Assembly: GCF_007904085.1 (NCBI RefSeq)
Contig: NZ_CP042326.1
Coordinates: 682,001-746,000, forward strand
Source: Euhalothece natronophila Z-M001
GTDB taxonomy: Bacteria > Cyanobacteriota > Cyanobacteriia > Cyanobacteriales > Rubidibacteraceae
Length of the DNA: 64,000 nucleotides
Reading direction: 5' to 3'
Part shown: one piece after another, positions 25,499-31,920 of the stretch
Numbering within the stretch: the stretch's first letter is position 1
Layout: every line of letters begins with the position of its first letter
The notes under the pieces: generated by a model
What the model was told of the DNA's origin: nothing
What the model saw: only the letters and a program-made list of their open reading frames with translations
Database searches by the model: none
Translations under genes and position numbers: made by a program

Positions 25499-25570
25499 GC
25501 CCGTGTAGCTCAGCGGTAGAGCACACCCTTGGTAAGGGTGAGGTCACGAGTTCAAGTCTCGTCACGGGCT
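25499..25570 (+). tRNA. trnT: tRNA-Thr (anticodon GGT), homing target of the adjacent CAST
   Basis: This is a 72-nt cloverleaf. The acceptor GCCCGTG pairs with CACGGGC with discriminator T, the anticodon stem CACCC/GGGTG has loop TTGGTAA, and the T-arm follows. Bases 25541-25557 (AGGTCACGAGTTCAAGT) equal the guide at 25788-25804 (opposite strand), with GTG at 25538-25540 as the PAM. The tRNA is intact, and the transposon end lies 16 bp beyond it. Confidence 0.95.
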
Positions 25571-25586: not shown

Positions 25587-25677
25587 TGTACATTCACTAA
25601 TTATTTGTCATCGGTAACAGATTAGTGTCGTCTTAACAAATTATTTGTCGTTATTACTAAAATTGTCGTTAGATCGC
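25587..25677. mobile_element. Type V-K CAST transposon end (TGTACA, TnsB-site repeats)
   Basis: The sequence starts TGTACA at 25587. Repeated TTTGTC/TGTCG/GACAAAT-type motifs follow: ATTATTTGTCATCGGTAACAG, AGTGTCGTCTTAAC, AAATTATTTGTCG, AAAATTGTCG. This is the same layout as the ends of known V-K CRISPR-associated transposons, where TnsB binds short repeats. It abuts the tRNA-Thr 46 bp downstream of the PAM. It is the CRISPR-proximal end of the element. The opposite end was not found. The 5 bp before TGTACA are GTAGG (possible target duplication). Confidence 0.8.
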
Positions 25678-25787: not shown

Positions 25788-26097
25788 ACTTGAACTCGTG
25801 ACCTCTTTCAATCCATCTCTAATTTTAATTGATGGATTCCTTCTTGCTCGAAGGTGATTCAGTAGCTATTCTATGATTAGCCCATCCCCCTATTGCTGGG
25901 AGCGCACCTACCTCGTAAGATCAAAGTACAAGACCTATTCTTTTACGAGTTAATCATTTCTACAAAATTGGCAGAAATCAGCATCAGGGTGAATCGCTAC
26001 TAGGGTCAGAAAGCACACCTACTTCTAGTAGATAAACTAACCCAAATTTTTCACAGTTCAGAGGCTCAAACTTGAGCATGACCAACGGCGCGATTAG
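25788..26097 (-). ncRNA. Naturally fused single-guide RNA (tracrRNA copy B + homing guide to tRNA-Thr)
   Basis: Reading on the minus strand from about 26097, the sequence follows the Cas12k tracrRNA: CGCCG-rich 5' end, CCTCTGAAC, GGGTTAGTTT, GCTTTCTGACCC, CACCCTGATGCTG, GGTGCGCTCCCAGCAA and ACTGAATCACC. At its 3' end, where a tracrRNA would stop at the anti-repeat, AATCCATC and GATGGATT form a perfect 8-bp hairpin with a 13-nt loop. The repeat-type end TGAAAG follows. The next 17 nt, AGGTCACGAGTTCAAGT, equal tRNA-Thr 25541-25557; the match ends exactly there. This is the same plan as an engineered Cas12k sgRNA. Promoter: a TATATA box lies near 26108. Confidence 0.82.
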
Positions 26098-26125
26098 ATT
26101 TATATAGATTTATATAGATTTATAT
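26096..26125. repeat. Three 10-bp tandem repeats (AGATTTATAT)
   Basis: Three exact copies of AGATTTATAT lie immediately upstream (minus strand) of tracrRNA copy B. On that strand they contribute TATA-like -10 sequences, and they may form or regulate its promoter. Confidence 0.8.
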
Positions 26126-26153
26126 TTCATATAAATGCCTTAGGAAGGATTAT

Positions 26154-26331
26154 CTTTCAATCAATCTTAAGGGCAAAACCTTATTGCAACCCCAATCTTT
26201 ATTTCCATTTTTAATGAAATGCACTTTCAATCAATCTTAAGGGCAAAACCTTATTGCAACTAAGAGGATAATCCGTAAGATAGTATAGGTTTTCCTTTCA
26301 ATCAATCTTAAGGGCAAAACCTTATTGCAAC
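26154..26331 (-). CRISPR. Type V-K CRISPR array: 3 repeats, 2 spacers
   Basis: Three identical 37-bp repeats are at 26154-26190, 26224-26260 and 26295-26331, separated by spacers of 33 and 34 bp. On the minus strand the repeat begins GTTGCAATAAGG, has an internal TAAGG/CCTTA hairpin and ends GATTGATTGAAAG, the terminal TTGAAAG being typical of Cas12k repeats. Transcription from the cas12k side is expected. No part of either spacer was seen elsewhere in the window. The array lies between the two tracrRNA copies. Confidence 0.95.
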
Positions 26332-26501: not shown

Positions 26502-26780
26502 CTTGGTTCAAAAAGCCTCAAACCAAGTCCTCAAGGTGATTCCCCCTTGCTCGGAGGTGGTTCAGTCGCTGTCACAGCAGTTAGCCCGCGCCCTTTTTGC
26601 TGGGAGCGCACCGACCCGATCGAAATTGATCAGTTAATCATCCCTACTCAAAAGTAGAAATCAGCATCAGGGTGGACGGCGACTAGGGTCAGAAAGCACA
26701 CCTACTTCTAGCAGGCAAACTAACCCACATTTTTCGCAGTTCAGAGGCTTAAAGTTAAGCATGACCTGCGGCGCGATTAA
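26502..26780 (-). ncRNA. Cas12k tracrRNA, canonical copy A
   Basis: On the minus strand, about 60 bp downstream of the cas12k stop, the sequence carries the conserved Cas12k tracrRNA blocks: CGCGCCGCAGGTCATGC, CCTCTGAAC, GTGGGTTAGTTTGC, GTGCTTTCTGACCC, CACCCTGATGCTG, GGTGCGCTCCCAGCAA and GACTGAACCACC. It ends in AATCACCTTGAGG, which can pair with the 3' part of the CRISPR repeat (complement of CTTAAG and GATT, allowing G-U). A 7-bp hairpin CTTGGTT/AACCAAG at 26502-26527 follows, probably the 3' end. Candidate promoter on the minus strand: TACAAT at 26788-26793 and TTGTTT at 26812-26817, 18 bp apart. Confidence 0.88.
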
Positions 26781-26843: not shown

Positions 26844-28709
26844 TCAACGAGCTTGATAAGCTAAAATTGCGATTTCTTTGGCTTCCTCTTGAGGAGAACC
26901 TCGAATCGTTTGTTGATTTTGCTCAATAGTAATTCCTCCTTGATTAGCTTTGGTTTTAATTTGTTCAATTAATCTGCCATAACTCCACTGATGAACTTCA
27001 ATTCGGTATTGTTTAGCATATTGTTTCTGTCCTTCGAGATAACCAGGAACTTTCTGTTCGGCTCGCATCTTGACTTCAGTTTGAATTAACTCACGGAGAT
27101 TTTCAAGTTTGGGTAGAACAATACTTCCCACTTGATAAGTTTGAGCAACTTTAACAATTGCTTTTGCGATTAAATGATCAATATATTCTCCTAGCTCAGA
27201 ATTTTTTAGCTGATTAGTGGCAAACTTTTTCTGATTTTTATGCCGTTGATGGGATTGCTTTTTCTTGGTTTGGCGTTGTCGATTGAGTAATTTATAGTTC
27301 TCACCTAATAGTTGTTTGATACTGCGATAAGTGATTGCTTTTCCAGTTGTACCATCAACGATCGCGATCGTGGCAGGTTTCTCTAATCTAAAAGCTACCC
27401 CAAGAAGGAGATGAGGTTGACCTTGATAGAGAGGTTTACTAGGACGGGGATAAGAATGCTTCAAGCGATCGCGCGTTGTTTGTTTACGCTTAATAAAGGC
27501 TTCTTGAGTTTGAGTTAAATTATCTTTCTCCTCCATGTTCGTGAGAATTTTAGTAATTTCATCACTTTTTTCCTGTTTGACTTGTTCAGTTCCTTCTGCT
27601 GTCCATAAGCGAGTATCAACTGTACACTGCAATGTTAAATAGTTAATCTGCCAAGGCTGACCTTTAGCTGTACCTTCTTGCCACAAAATACGGGCGGAAC
27701 GAAGAGTAAATAAGCTACTAGAATGGTGCTTTTTGCTGGCTCGTTTGGTTTCCTGATCTTCGTAAAATCGTTGAAACCACTTGAGTTGTCTTTGGTCACA
27801 ATAAATTTGAAATGTCTGCTTACTTAAGCCACTAAACCGAACACAAAGGCGACCTTTTTCGTTTTTACTCCACGTTAAATCCTCATTGGTTTCGTAACTG
27901 ATGGGAAAGGGAACAGATTTGGGCTTAGTCAGTAAGATATTTTGCCAAGATTTGAATTGTTCTTTATCTTTGGGAACGGTATTCGCTGCGGTGAGTAAGG
28001 TTTCTAACCATTGTTCCCCAGTTAAATCTCGTCCTTTGGGTAAACTGCTTTCGATTTGCTTGGTTAATCGTTCAACTTTGATTTCTGCTTTACGTCGTCG
28101 TTGAGCGAATTTTTCAGGGTCTTCTTCCTCTTTAGGAAGTTTACAATTGTTTTTGAGAAGGTACGCGATCGCGCTCCGAGTTAAACTATCTTCTGCATTG
28201 TCATGAGCATCAAACAGACTTTTTCCATAACTATTTTTTTGCTTTTTCGATTTCTTTTTGCTCTTACTTGTAGAAGGCTGAAGAGAGGCAAGGATTTCAC
28301 TGGCTTGATGGCGAAGTGTCTTTAAAGAACACTCTGCTTGGGTACAGAGTTCTTGATCACTTTTGAGAATTTCTAACCAGCGTTTTTGACCATTGAGCCT
28401 CCATTGCAAGCGTTGCTGTAGGGCAAGCCAAGATTGATAAATATATTCCACCAACTTAGTCGCGCTGGTATAAAATCTTGCTGGTTGACCAATGAAGCGA
28501 GAATCTTCTTTTAAAGGCTTACAGAGTTGGCTAACGATTCCCCCAGGAAGTTTTCCTTTCTGTCGCCAAGTTTCAAATTCAGGATGTTCCGCTACCTGTT
28601 TTAGCAGTTCGTTGATTAACGGCGTATTCTGTTGCGCCATTAACTGCCAAAGCTGATGGCGAGTGTCTTCGCTGGCAACAAGGCGACATTGAATCGTTAT
28701 TTGGCTCAT
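26844..28709 (-). CDS. cas12k: Cas12k, nuclease-dead effector of a type V-K CRISPR-associated transposon
   Basis: The 621-residue protein aligns by eye with Scytonema hofmannii Cas12k over its length. Matching blocks: start MSQITIQCRLV; NTPLINELL; SRSAIAYLLKNNCKL-like; PKGRDLTGEQWLETLLTA; SLFTLRSARILWQEG; PSKPLYQGQ; LEKPATIAIVDG; SYGRLIEQIKTKA; and IRGSPQEEAKEIAILAY. At the RuvC-I position, where active Cas12/TnpB has D-x-G, this protein has VAFRLEKPA, so the catalytic Asp is absent, as in all Cas12k. It is expected to bind the guide and target without cutting, and to recruit TniQ/TnsC/TnsB. Those partners are not in the window. It is divergent from cvkR. Confidence 0.95.
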   Translation of the reverse strand: MSQITIQCRLVASEDTRHQLWQLMAQQNTPLINELLKQVAEHPEFETWRQKGKLPGGIVSQLCKPLKEDSRFIGQPARFYTSATKLVEYIYQSWLALQQRLQWRLNGQKRWLEILKSDQELCTQAECSLKTLRHQASEILASLQPSTSKSKKKSKKQKNSYGKSLFDAHDNAEDSLTRSAIAYLLKNNCKLPKEEEDPEKFAQRRRKAEIKVERLTKQIESSLPKGRDLTGEQWLETLLTAANTVPKDKEQFKSWQNILLTKPKSVPFPISYETNEDLTWSKNEKGRLCVRFSGLSKQTFQIYCDQRQLKWFQRFYEDQETKRASKKHHSSSLFTLRSARILWQEGTAKGQPWQINYLTLQCTVDTRLWTAEGTEQVKQEKSDEITKILTNMEEKDNLTQTQEAFIKRKQTTRDRLKHSYPRPSKPLYQGQPHLLLGVAFRLEKPATIAIVDGTTGKAITYRSIKQLLGENYKLLNRQRQTKKKQSHQRHKNQKKFATNQLKNSELGEYIDHLIAKAIVKVAQTYQVGSIVLPKLENLRELIQTEVKMRAEQKVPGYLEGQKQYAKQYRIEVHQWSYGRLIEQIKTKANQGGITIEQNQQTIRGSPQEEAKEIAILAYQAR

Positions 28710-28776: not shown

Positions 28777-29214
28777 ATGAACAAACAATTTTTCACTAGC
28801 CGAGAAGCCGCTCAAATTACAGGTTGTTCCCTTCGTCAATTGCAGTATTGGCGGGAAAAAGAGGTGGTTGTACCAACAATTGCGGGGACGGGGACAGGAC
28901 GTAGTGTGTACTACTCCTATTCCGAGTTGGTGGAACTTAAGCTGATGGAATCTTGGTTAGCGATTGGTTTTAGCTTTGACCGTTCAAGGATGCTTCTGGA
29001 TAAGTTGAGGTTTTATAAGGATAAGTTTGATTATTTAAATCCTGAAACAACTGATCGAGTAATGTTCTATTGGAATCCTGATTGGGAGCGTTTATTATTA
29101 GACCCTTTTGAGCGCGATCGCGCTATTGAATGTCTGGATCAAGGATTAGCCGTCATTCCGTTATGGTTTGATCAAATTCATCATCAGTTACGTCTTAAGC
29201 TAAAATATTCTTGA
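28777..29214 (+). CDS. cvkR: MerR-type repressor CvkR of the type V-K CAST
   Basis: The 145 residues start with a MerR winged-helix DNA-binding domain: FFTSREAAQITGCSLRQLQYWREKEVVVP, then GTGRSVYYSYSELVELKLM. Only a short helical C-terminus follows, without an effector-binding domain. Such small MerR-like genes sit divergent to cas12k in cyanobacterial V-K elements. The characterised Anabaena homologue (CvkR) represses cas12k and the guide RNAs. Length and position match. A HIP1 site lies near residue 110. Confidence 0.85.
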   Translation: MNKQFFTSREAAQITGCSLRQLQYWREKEVVVPTIAGTGTGRSVYYSYSELVELKLMESWLAIGFSFDRSRMLLDKLRFYKDKFDYLNPETTDRVMFYWNPDWERLLLDPFERDRAIECLDQGLAVIPLWFDQIHHQLRLKLKYS

Positions 29215-31040: not shown

Positions 31041-31497
31041 TTATAGGGCTTGGTCTAATTTGGTAAAGACCTGTTCCACGATCGCGGTGACTGCTTCTAA
31101 GTCATCCATTTCAGCATAAATTGCAAAGGTTACTTTTTTCCTTAACTCTCTTAATTCTCCCTCACTATTTTGCCAGTTAGGATATTGGATAAAGGCTTCT
31201 CTAATTTTATTGCTTACTGCTTGCGGGTCTTCAATTCCTGCGTTTTCCAAAATTTGATAAACAAAATAACTTAAACTATCAAATCCTTTTCTGGCTTGTT
31301 CTTGTTTGCGTTTTTCGTCTCGCTCAATTTCTTGTAAGAGAACATCTAGAGTGTCTTGGGTACTGGTTTGACGATTTTCAAATTTATCTTGAATAGCTTT
31401 CGCTCGTTCTGCCATTGCGATTAAAAAGGGATCGTCACTATTTTCTTCAGCATTTCTGTCAATACTTTTGATTAAATTAATAACTTTAGCCCTCTTT
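31041..31497 (-). pseudogene. hsdR: Type I restriction enzyme HsdR, C-terminal stump
   Basis: The frame reads KVINLIKSIDRNAEENSDDP, FLIAMAERAKAIQDKFENRQ and then 110 more residues to the stop at 31041. This is the C-terminal helical region of the HsdR subunit of type I restriction-modification enzymes, which contacts the methyltransferase. The reading frame is open upstream of the internal ATG (31415) to about 31497, where the IS701-type sequence starts. The motor and nuclease domains are gone, as are hsdM and hsdS, so it is inactive. Confidence 0.75.
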
Positions 31498-31560
31498 TGT
31501 CACTTTCCGAGAAAAATGATAAGAAAAGAAAAGTAAGAACAAAGAGGGAAGCGACTGCTC

Positions 31561-31740
31561 ATGATGGATGTAGCATTACAGATTCGTCAACACCTACCGC
31601 GAGATCCAGAACCTACTAGCGCGATCGTAGACAACTATTGTGCTTACTATCAAGACCTGTTTCAAGATGTGAGAAATTATGAATGCTTTAAATTTTTACA
31701 TTTAGGGACTTGCGAAAAAATGAATTACCCAGGAAACTAG
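31561..31740 (+). pseudogene. IS701-family transposase, N-terminal fragment
   Basis: The frame begins MMDVALQIRQHLP and goes on to AIVDNYCAYYQDLFQDVRNYECFKFLHLG, the characteristic N-terminus of IS701-type transposases. After about 49 residues the similarity stops (near 31708), and the frame ends at 31740. The left inverted repeat is presumably near 31490. It truncates hsdR. Confidence 0.7.
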
Positions 31741-31774
31741 AAGAGATGATATTGGTAATACCATTTCTAAAAAC

Positions 31775-31920
31775 CTACACTACAGTAAGAGCTTTTTGTA
31801 GGTAATCCCAATTGGTTAGAGAGATGATAGTTTTCGGTGTAATTTTCTTTAAAATAGTTCTTACTTCTTCCTTAAGTTCTTCCAGTTCTTCAGAGACTGT
31901 TCCTAAAATAAACCTTAAGA
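31775..31920 (-). pseudogene. Transposase C-terminal fragment, IS630-like
   Basis: The minus-strand frame LRFILGTVSEELEELKEEVR to ITPKTIISLTNWDYLQKALTVV and a stop resembles the C-terminus of IS630-type cyanobacterial transposases. Only about 48 residues are left. The family assignment is tentative. Confidence 0.45.

What the first reader, a model, noticed from the sequence alone, without database searches (positions are those of the whole stretch)
25788..26097. A naturally encoded single-guide RNA for Cas12k homing to tRNA-Thr
Seen: tracrRNA copy B does not stop at an anti-repeat. It runs into AATCCATC, a 13-nt loop and GATGGATT, then TGAAAG and a 17-nt guide. The guide equals tRNA-Thr 25541-25557 exactly and stops matching after 17 nt. 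GTG precedes the match, as expected for a GTN PAM. Known: homing in V-K transposons uses a delocalised guide with a partial repeat, and laboratory sgRNAs join tracrRNA and repeat by a loop. Inference: here the joint is genomic, so homing would need no RNA processing or duplex formation. I do not recall a duplicated tracrRNA fused in this way, but novelty has to be checked.
Basis: partly seen in the sequence, partly recalled or inferred. Interest (0 to 1): 0.96.

Follow-up and report, generated by a model that had tools for sequence, protein, structure and literature searches.

The report
Natural single-guide RNA for Cas12k homing
A cyanobacterial CRISPR-guided transposon carries a second, duplicated tracrRNA that is joined in the genome, through a small hairpin, to the guide that matches its tRNA landing site, so nature appears to have built the one-piece guide RNA that laboratories make by hand.

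Summary
On the minus strand, tracrRNA copy B (26095-25834) runs into an 8-bp hairpin (25838-25810), GAAAG and a 17-nt guide (25804-25788) identical to tRNA-Thr 25541-25557 behind GTG; the transposon end starts 46 nt after the PAM. The setting is a type V-K CAST: Cas12k, CvkR-position regulator, tracrRNA A, three-repeat array. The layout is neither unique nor standard. Of 78 loci with a tracrRNA and a target-matched homing guide, 12 are fused (guide within 60 nt of the tracrRNA end); 66 are not (80-3287 nt, median 536). In all 11 two-tracrRNA loci the second copy has the fused layout. There the array tracrRNA is predicted to pair poorly with the homing half-repeat (10 of 11 weaker than all of 65 standard loci), so homing probably depends on the cis copy. 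Guides changed between tRNAs while the fused backbone stayed conserved. Three A/B chimeras have no detected array and keep only the fused RNA; one has uninterrupted tns genes. Expression and activity are untested; in this genome tnsBC lie about 250 kb away and tniQ is shortened. New variant of a known kind; not found in ten searches, but two key papers were not held.

The parts
25499..25570 (+). tRNA-Thr (GGT), attachment-site gene
   Evidence: ARAGORN; Rfam RF00005
25538..25540 (+). GTG, fits the GTN PAM
   Evidence: sequence; GTN PAM from PMC9938897
25541..25557 (+). protospacer, 17 of 17 identical to the guide
   Evidence: same bases at tRNA-Thr without the transposon end in three same-genus genomes (L171, L173, L175)
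25587..25592 (+). TGTACA, start of the transposon left end, 46 nt after the PAM
   Evidence: published range 46-82 nt, one exception of 147
25788..25804 (-). 17-nt homing guide
25805..25809 (-). GAAAG, 3' end of the half-repeat
25810..25838 (-). joint hairpin: anti-repeat AATCCATC, 13-nt loop, half-repeat GATGGATT
   Evidence: folds -8.7 kcal/mol, z -3.1, 0 of 200 shuffles; stacked on the CCTTC/GAAGG stem in the fold of the whole RNA
25834..26095 (-). tracrRNA copy B (fused copy)
   Evidence: profile match 158.9 bits, model 1-214
26099..26104 (-). TATAAA, possible -10 box of copy B; five f8 loci have TATAAT 3-4 nt before copy B in the same place
   Evidence: upstream sequences printed, read by eye; not picked as a full promoter by the consensus scan
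26154..26331 (-). CRISPR array, three 37-nt repeats
26502..26527 (-). terminator-like hairpin after tracrRNA A; the scan listed none after copy B
   Evidence: 2 found in the region, 1.1 expected: weak
26537..26778 (-). tracrRNA copy A (array copy)
   Evidence: profile match 173.1 bits, model 1-214
26844..28709 (-). cas12k, 621 aa, uninterrupted
   Evidence: NCBIfam NF038191 E 1.8e-291
28777..29214 (+). MerR-family regulator in the CvkR position
   Evidence: Pfam PF13411 E 1.1e-17; position as in PMC9938897

Best explanation
Copy B is a naturally encoded single-guide RNA for Cas12k. A duplicate of the tracrRNA stands directly in front of the delocalised homing half-repeat, so that anti-repeat and half-repeat close a hairpin in cis and the 17-nt guide follows. 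Cas12k loaded with it would find tRNA-Thr behind a GTN PAM and direct insertion some 46-62 nt downstream. Copy A, with its own anti-repeat, would serve the array for other targets. Shown here: the sequence anatomy, its recurrence, conservation of the fused backbone with changing guides, and the predicted poor pairing of A with the homing half-repeat. Inferred: transcription as one RNA, loading on Cas12k, and use in transposition.
For: 12 of 78 assessed loci are fused, in two places of the Cas12k tree. In all 11 two-tracrRNA loci the second copy runs into [TC]GAAAG within 17-49 nt of its profile end. In four f8 loci the tracrRNA is invariant at 190 of 212 positions and the rest of the joint at 16 of 17, but the guide at 8 of 17, and guides match tRNA-Arg(tct), tRNA-Leu(gag) and tRNA-Arg(acg). 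Fifteen fused copies share a consensus tracrRNA fold: 741 of 765 cells paired, 21 of 51 pairs with changes on both sides (the fold was derived from these same sequences). The joint arms of 17 loci (11 distinct pairs, L088/L089 included) match each other better than swapped arms: 73 of 88 standard pairs against a mean of 59.3, 0 of 2000 permutations. Copy A pairs with the homing half-repeat at +1.2 to -6.5 kcal/mol (median -1.7); in 65 standard loci the sole tracrRNA does so at -6.0 to -19.9, median -13.1. Three chimeric loci (A-like 5', B-like 3') have one tracrRNA in the stretch searched and no array by the exact-repeat test; in L062 tnsB, tnsC and tniQ frames and cas12k are uninterrupted.
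Against: No RNA data. Joints of L101 and L133 fold no better than shuffles (80 and 205 of 300 as good). The consensus fold does not contain the joint, whose unequal lengths did not align. In L101, L130 and L149 copy B is predicted to pair at least as well with a repeat-like sequence as with its own half-repeat. L136 overlaps the weakest standard pairing (-6.5 against -6.0). Five of the 11 two-tracrRNA loci (L063, L130, L136, L149, L150) show no array by the exact-repeat test, so the two-channel reading rests on six. In this genome tnsB-tnsC lie about 250 kb away and tniQ is shortened, so current activity is doubtful. The scan found no convincing promoter for B.
Confidence: 0.82

Rival explanations
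1. Ordinary two-piece homing: the loop is cut, or A serves the homing half-repeat in trans, and the adjacency is only a by-product of duplication.
For: In the 65 standard loci tested the sole tracrRNA is predicted to pair well in trans with the homing half-repeat. L088/L089 show a half-repeat 80 nt from the tracrRNA end, where folding does not favour a cis joint.
Against: A pairs poorly with the half-repeat in 10 of 11 two-tracrRNA loci. Joints of 7 bp with 3-nt loops in f8 are too short for RNase III by general knowledge (recalled). In L038, L062 and L074 no second tracrRNA was found between 150 bases before and 3500 after the cas12k end, coding strand only.
Confidence: 0.1
2. Copy B is a decaying remnant of an old duplication with no present use.
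For: The window's element is not intact: no tns genes in the window, tnsBC far away, tniQ shortened.
Against: Guide and protospacer still match 17 of 17 here. B copies form supported groups in f8 (100/99) and f11/f53 (98/99) and share a consensus fold.
Confidence: 0.05
3. The fused RNA mainly guides Cas12k to bind and regulate the tRNA or element promoters rather than transposition, as tracr-L does for Cas9.
For: A natural single-guide RNA acting as a repressor is known for Cas9 (passages of PMC8616872 and PMC11417352); Cas12k here is intact although tns genes are not beside it.
Against: In the fused loci the guide's target lies next to the element's end; PAM-to-TGTACA spacing is 46-62 nt in 9 of the 10 where TGTACA was found (L136 gave 114; L130 and L133 none found), as expected if the guide chose the insertion site.
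Confidence: 0.03

Closest known systems
Delocalised homing crRNA ('anchor spacer' with half-repeat R*) of type V-K CASTs
   Same: 17-nt guide, GTN PAM, tRNA target next to the left end, half-repeat ending in GAAAG
   Different: There the half-repeat is separate and, by predicted pairing, uses the array's tracrRNA in trans; here a second tracrRNA is joined to it in the genome and the trans pairing is weak
Laboratory Cas12k single-guide RNA (layout recalled)
   Same: tracrRNA, short loop, half-repeat, guide in one RNA
   Different: Here the joint is in the genome (13-nt loop in the window, 3-nt loops in f8) and carries a dedicated homing guide
tracr-L of type II-A Cas9 (natural single-guide RNA)
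   Same: One natural RNA holds tracrRNA and guide for a Cas effector
   Different: tracr-L is a longer isoform whose 5' end holds an 11-nt match and it represses the cas promoter (passages); here a duplicated gene carries a 3' guide matching the transposon's landing site
TnpB omega RNA (recalled)
   Same: One RNA with scaffold 5' and guide 3'
   Different: Cas12k B is a tracrRNA duplicate, a secondary one-RNA state, not an ancestral omega RNA

Membership tests
Type V-K CAST | Cas12k effector | tested here: met
   NF038191 968 bits, cut-off 150
Type V-K CAST | tnsB-tnsC-tniQ next to the right end of the same element | tested here: not met
   none in the window (tblastn with the genome's own tns proteins); tnsB-tnsC and a shortened tniQ stand at G000:C1 958-963 kb, about 250 kb away, with a TGTACA end whose flank TGAAG does not match GTAGG at the left end. 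The left half has the family's parts; the element as a whole is not intact here
Type V-K CAST | left end downstream of a tRNA gene with PAM-to-end distance 46-82 nt | tested here: met
   46 nt; tRNA-Thr neighbourhoods without the end in three same-genus genomes
Delocalised V-K homing guide | about 17-nt spacer matching the flanking tRNA with a GTN PAM | tested here: met
   17 of 17, GTG
Delocalised V-K homing guide | separate half-repeat served by the array tracrRNA in trans | tested here: not met
   guide starts 29 nt after the profile end of tracrRNA B; A predicted to pair at only -1.7 kcal/mol
Natural single-guide RNA | tracrRNA and guide in one continuous stretch | tested here: met
Natural single-guide RNA | one transcript that loads and directs the effector | not testable with these tools
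   no RNA or activity data
tracr-L type single-guide RNA | guide at the 5' end, from a longer isoform of the tracrRNA gene | tested here: not met
   guide is 3' and the gene is a second copy

The most novel reading that the evidence does not exclude
Type V-K transposons have repeatedly split their guide supply into two private channels (tracrRNA A with the array, fused B for homing) and then, by A x B recombination, dropped the CRISPR array altogether, leaving homing-only transposons run by one omega-RNA-like guide gene: a return from CRISPR to the one-RNA state of TnpB.
Probability: 0.5. Interest if true: 0.86.

Novelty: new variant of a known kind. Interest (0 to 1): 0.77.

Why it matters
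It would be a natural precedent for the engineered Cas12k single-guide RNA. It gives a concrete way in which V-K transposons could keep homing and spreading guides apart, and a route by which a CRISPR-guided transposon loses its array. Natural joints paired with real 17-nt homing guides may be useful for CAST tools, where off-site insertion in the laboratory contrasts with guided insertion in nature (PMC11406308, section on type V-K read).

Tried and rejected
Motif alone is not enough: one search also listed [TC]GAAAG within 5-35 nt of a tracrRNA end in L144, L121, L124, L084, L068, L097 and L098. None is counted as fused, because the target scan gave no match for the 17 nt there. L097/L098 are a degenerate array set against the tracrRNA, with an ordinary homing half-repeat further on. 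L088/L089 (80 nt) were considered as long-loop fusions; folding gives no support (175 and 240 of 300 shuffles as good).

Rfam has no family for this tracrRNA; at the gathering score only tRNAs rang, and weak CRISPR repeats below it. That left end and distant tnsBC are one element was tested by the flanking 5-mers and not supported. A protein search of plasmid records found two with Cas12k relatives; not followed.

Dropped or incomplete: the lists hold many partial matches, and one search's list was cut. I fetched 120 stretches from them (40), chosen by hand for the cas12k 3' side; six loci came. With the window, 127 loci were loaded and 126 oriented (L039 has no cas12k); three with identical 800-nt downstream sequence (L055, L064, L129) were dropped, leaving 123. 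The standard-locus pairing control has 65, not 66, because L088 fell under its distance filter. Five loci with the fused layout (L114, L133, L136, L149, L150) gave no full Cas12k frame and are not in the Cas12k tree.

Literature: ten searches; three lists were capped (40 of 51, 8 of 10, 40 of 64). Not held: Saito 2021, the Hsieh and Peters 2021 preprint (title recalled), and the papers asked for. A mention there cannot be excluded. Supplements were not read.

Full report
Observation. The sequence is as described. On the minus strand, tracrRNA B ends in GAAGG and runs into AATCCATC, a 13-nt loop, GATGGATT, GAAAG and a 17-nt guide at 25804-25788. The guide equals 25541-25557 inside tRNA-Thr; one further base matches only if the last G of GAAAG is counted. 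GTG precedes the match. The joint folds at -8.7 kcal/mol with 0 of 200 shuffles as good. In the fold of the whole RNA it stacks on the last tracrRNA stem, the place where laboratory single-guide RNAs are joined (recalled).

Surroundings. Cas12k is certain, with a MerR regulator in the CvkR position, tracrRNA A, an array of three repeats and the left end TGTACA at 25587, 46 nt after the PAM. tnsB, tnsC and tniQ are not in the window. In the same genome tnsB and tnsC stand about 250 kb away with a shortened tniQ (148-aa frame; 157-181 aa in L061-L063 and L168) and a TGTACA end. Its outer flank TGAAG does not match GTAGG at the left end, so the two halves are not shown to be one element. Of five same-genus relatives looked at around the tRNA-Tyr/tRNA-Thr pair (L171-L175), three (L171, L173, L175) show the pair without the TGTACA end and with the protospacer intact; in L172 the pair lies on the other strand and was not searched, and in L174 no tRNA was found.

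Survey. Cas12k was found in 42 of 386 genomes drawn from the phylum and 124 of 388 from the order; the draws overlap. From these and, 126 loci with the window were oriented; after removal of three exact duplicates 123 remained. A tracrRNA profile reached its 3' end in 100, with two copies in 11; 23 had none. A scan for GAAAG plus 17 nt matching downstream antisense DNA behind GTN (up to 4 mismatches) found a guide in 86, and 78 had both. In 12 of 78 the guide lies within 60 nt of the tracrRNA profile end: the window, L038, L061, L062, L069, L094, L101, L114, L130, L133, L136, L150. In 66 it lies 80 to 3287 nt away, median 536. In all 11 two-copy loci (those of the 12 except L038, L062 and L133, plus L063 and L149) the second copy is the one followed by [TC]GAAAG, 17-49 nt from its profile end. 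Six of the 11 have an array by an exact-repeat test; L063, L130, L136, L149 and L150 do not.

Conservation. In four f8 loci (L061, L069, L114, L136) the fused tracrRNA is invariant at 190 of 212 positions and the rest of the joint at 16 of 17, against 8 of 17 in the guide; in four f11/f53 loci the figures are 179 of 213, 11 of 26 and 8 of 17. The f8 guides match tRNA-Arg(tct), tRNA-Leu(gag) and tRNA-Arg(acg), each next to its own element; the match in L136 was not called a tRNA. Fifteen fused copies share a consensus tracrRNA fold, 741 of 765 cells paired and 21 of 51 pairs with changes on both sides; the fold was derived from the same sequences and does not include the joint, whose unequal lengths did not align. 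Over 17 loci with 11 distinct arm pairs, L088/L089 included, the joint arms form 73 of 88 standard pairs; swapped arms average 59.3 and reach at most 70 in 2000 trials. Single joints beat shuffles clearly in the window (0 of 300) and L038 (1), less so in the f8 loci (3-8), L130 (4), L149 (9), L150 (11) and L094 (12), and not in L101 (80) and L133 (205).

Two channels. In the six loci with at least two exact array repeats (window, L061, L069, L094, L101, L114), A pairs better with the repeat than with the homing half-repeat in 6 of 6, and B better with its own half-repeat in 5 of 6 (not L101). In the other five the 'repeat' was a motif found once and is unsure; there B favoured it over its own half-repeat in L130 and L149. 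With equal 13-nt windows, A to the half-repeat ranges from +1.2 to -6.5 kcal/mol in the 11 loci (window -1.7). In 65 standard loci the sole tracrRNA reaches -6.0 to -19.9, median -13.1, so 10 of 11 lie outside that range; L136 (-6.5) overlaps it. This suggests that homing in the fused loci no longer works with the array's tracrRNA. These are model energies of short duplexes, not measurements.

Origin. On the tracrRNA tree (48 rows) A and B of the window lie together with L038 (99/95). In f8 all A (100/95) and all B (100/99) form separate groups inside one f8 group (100/98). In f11/f53 B forms a supported group (98/99) and A a weaker one (93/96), not resolved as sisters. Starred branches force at least three changes of the label. 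Separate duplications in three lineages are the plain reading; one duplication followed by gene conversion is not excluded. On the Cas12k tree (103 rows, quick method, SH-aLRT only; L063 and L074 labelled fused by layout) fused loci sit in two places within one 30-row clade (99); three label changes are needed, one because of L116, where no tracrRNA was found and the layout could not be judged. The nearest standard relative of the window pair is L078. L062, L074 and L038 are chimeras. Against L063, L062 has 50 A-like and 3 B-like sites in its first 120 columns, then 2 and 50. L074 against L069 gives 54 and 3, then 2 and 42. L038 against the window is less clean: 42 and 15 in the first 200 columns, then 12 and 38. 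L133 against L101 shows no such switch. The three chimeras have no array by the exact-repeat test. L062 and L063 lie in one genome (G054) and have identical Cas12k proteins, so the recombination may be recent there. L062 has uninterrupted tnsB, tnsC and tniQ frames over the matched stretches.

Mechanism. Most likely B is transcribed as one RNA, folds like a tracrRNA-crRNA pair, loads Cas12k and sends the element to the tRNA. In five f8 loci copy B has TATAAT 3-4 nt before its profile start, and the window has TATAAA at the same place (by eye), but the consensus scan gives no convincing full promoter. One-transcript status, loading and use are inferred. The PAM-to-TGTACA spacing of fused loci (46-62 nt in 9 of 10 found; L136 114) is like that of 43 other loci (36-86, median 60, values over 200 left out).

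Comparison with what is known. The CvkR paper (architecture section with Fig. 1 legend read) describes a 17-nt anchor spacer behind a half-repeat of about 12 nt, usually clearly separated from the array. Passages of reviews from 2024 and 2025 and the V-K section of one of them describe truncated, separately placed homing crRNAs; the passages seen mention no fused copy. Passages of PMC10293859 do not bear on it. tracr-L of Cas9 is the nearest natural single-guide RNA met in the library, but has its guide at the 5' end and acts as a repressor (passages). Ten library searches listed no description of a natural Cas12k single-guide RNA by title or abstract start; Saito 2021 and the Hsieh and Peters preprint were not held, so novelty is provisional.

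Noticed in passing
L088, L089, +300 to +950 after cas12k: The homing half-repeat and guide come before the array, 80 nt from the tracrRNA end; between guide and array lies what looks by eye like a degenerate tracrRNA 3' half with an A-type anti-repeat. Possible intermediate with reversed order.
   Followed up: partly
L097, L098, +265 to +480: Two copies in one genome with the tracrRNA set directly against a degenerate array (anti-repeat, half-repeat, non-tRNA spacer) and a separate homing half-repeat further on; a possible fused RNA with an array-type guide.
   Followed up: partly
L167 (G000:C1 957-963 kb) and window 31487-31892: tnsB-tnsC with a shortened tniQ beside ORFs that look like transposases by eye, about 250 kb from cas12k; two repeats link the places, 220 bp (97%, opposite strands) and 138 bp (97%, same strand).
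   Followed up: partly
L168, 12396-12794: Same-genus genome G366 has, beside a different tnsB-tnsC-tniQ operon (TnsB 61% identical), a tniQ piece 87% identical to that of the window's genome.
   Followed up: no
L062 and L063 (genome G054): Two elements with identical Cas12k, one with both tracrRNAs and one reduced to a chimeric fused RNA. The guide of L063 found no match next to its end, so that copy may have moved to another kind of site.
   Followed up: partly
window 26098-26130: Near-tandem TATATAAATC-like units directly upstream of tracrRNA B.
   Followed up: no
L065, L068: Nearly the same tRNA-Thr(GGT) guide as the window in standard, non-fused layouts; the same attachment site is used by both layouts.
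   Followed up: partly
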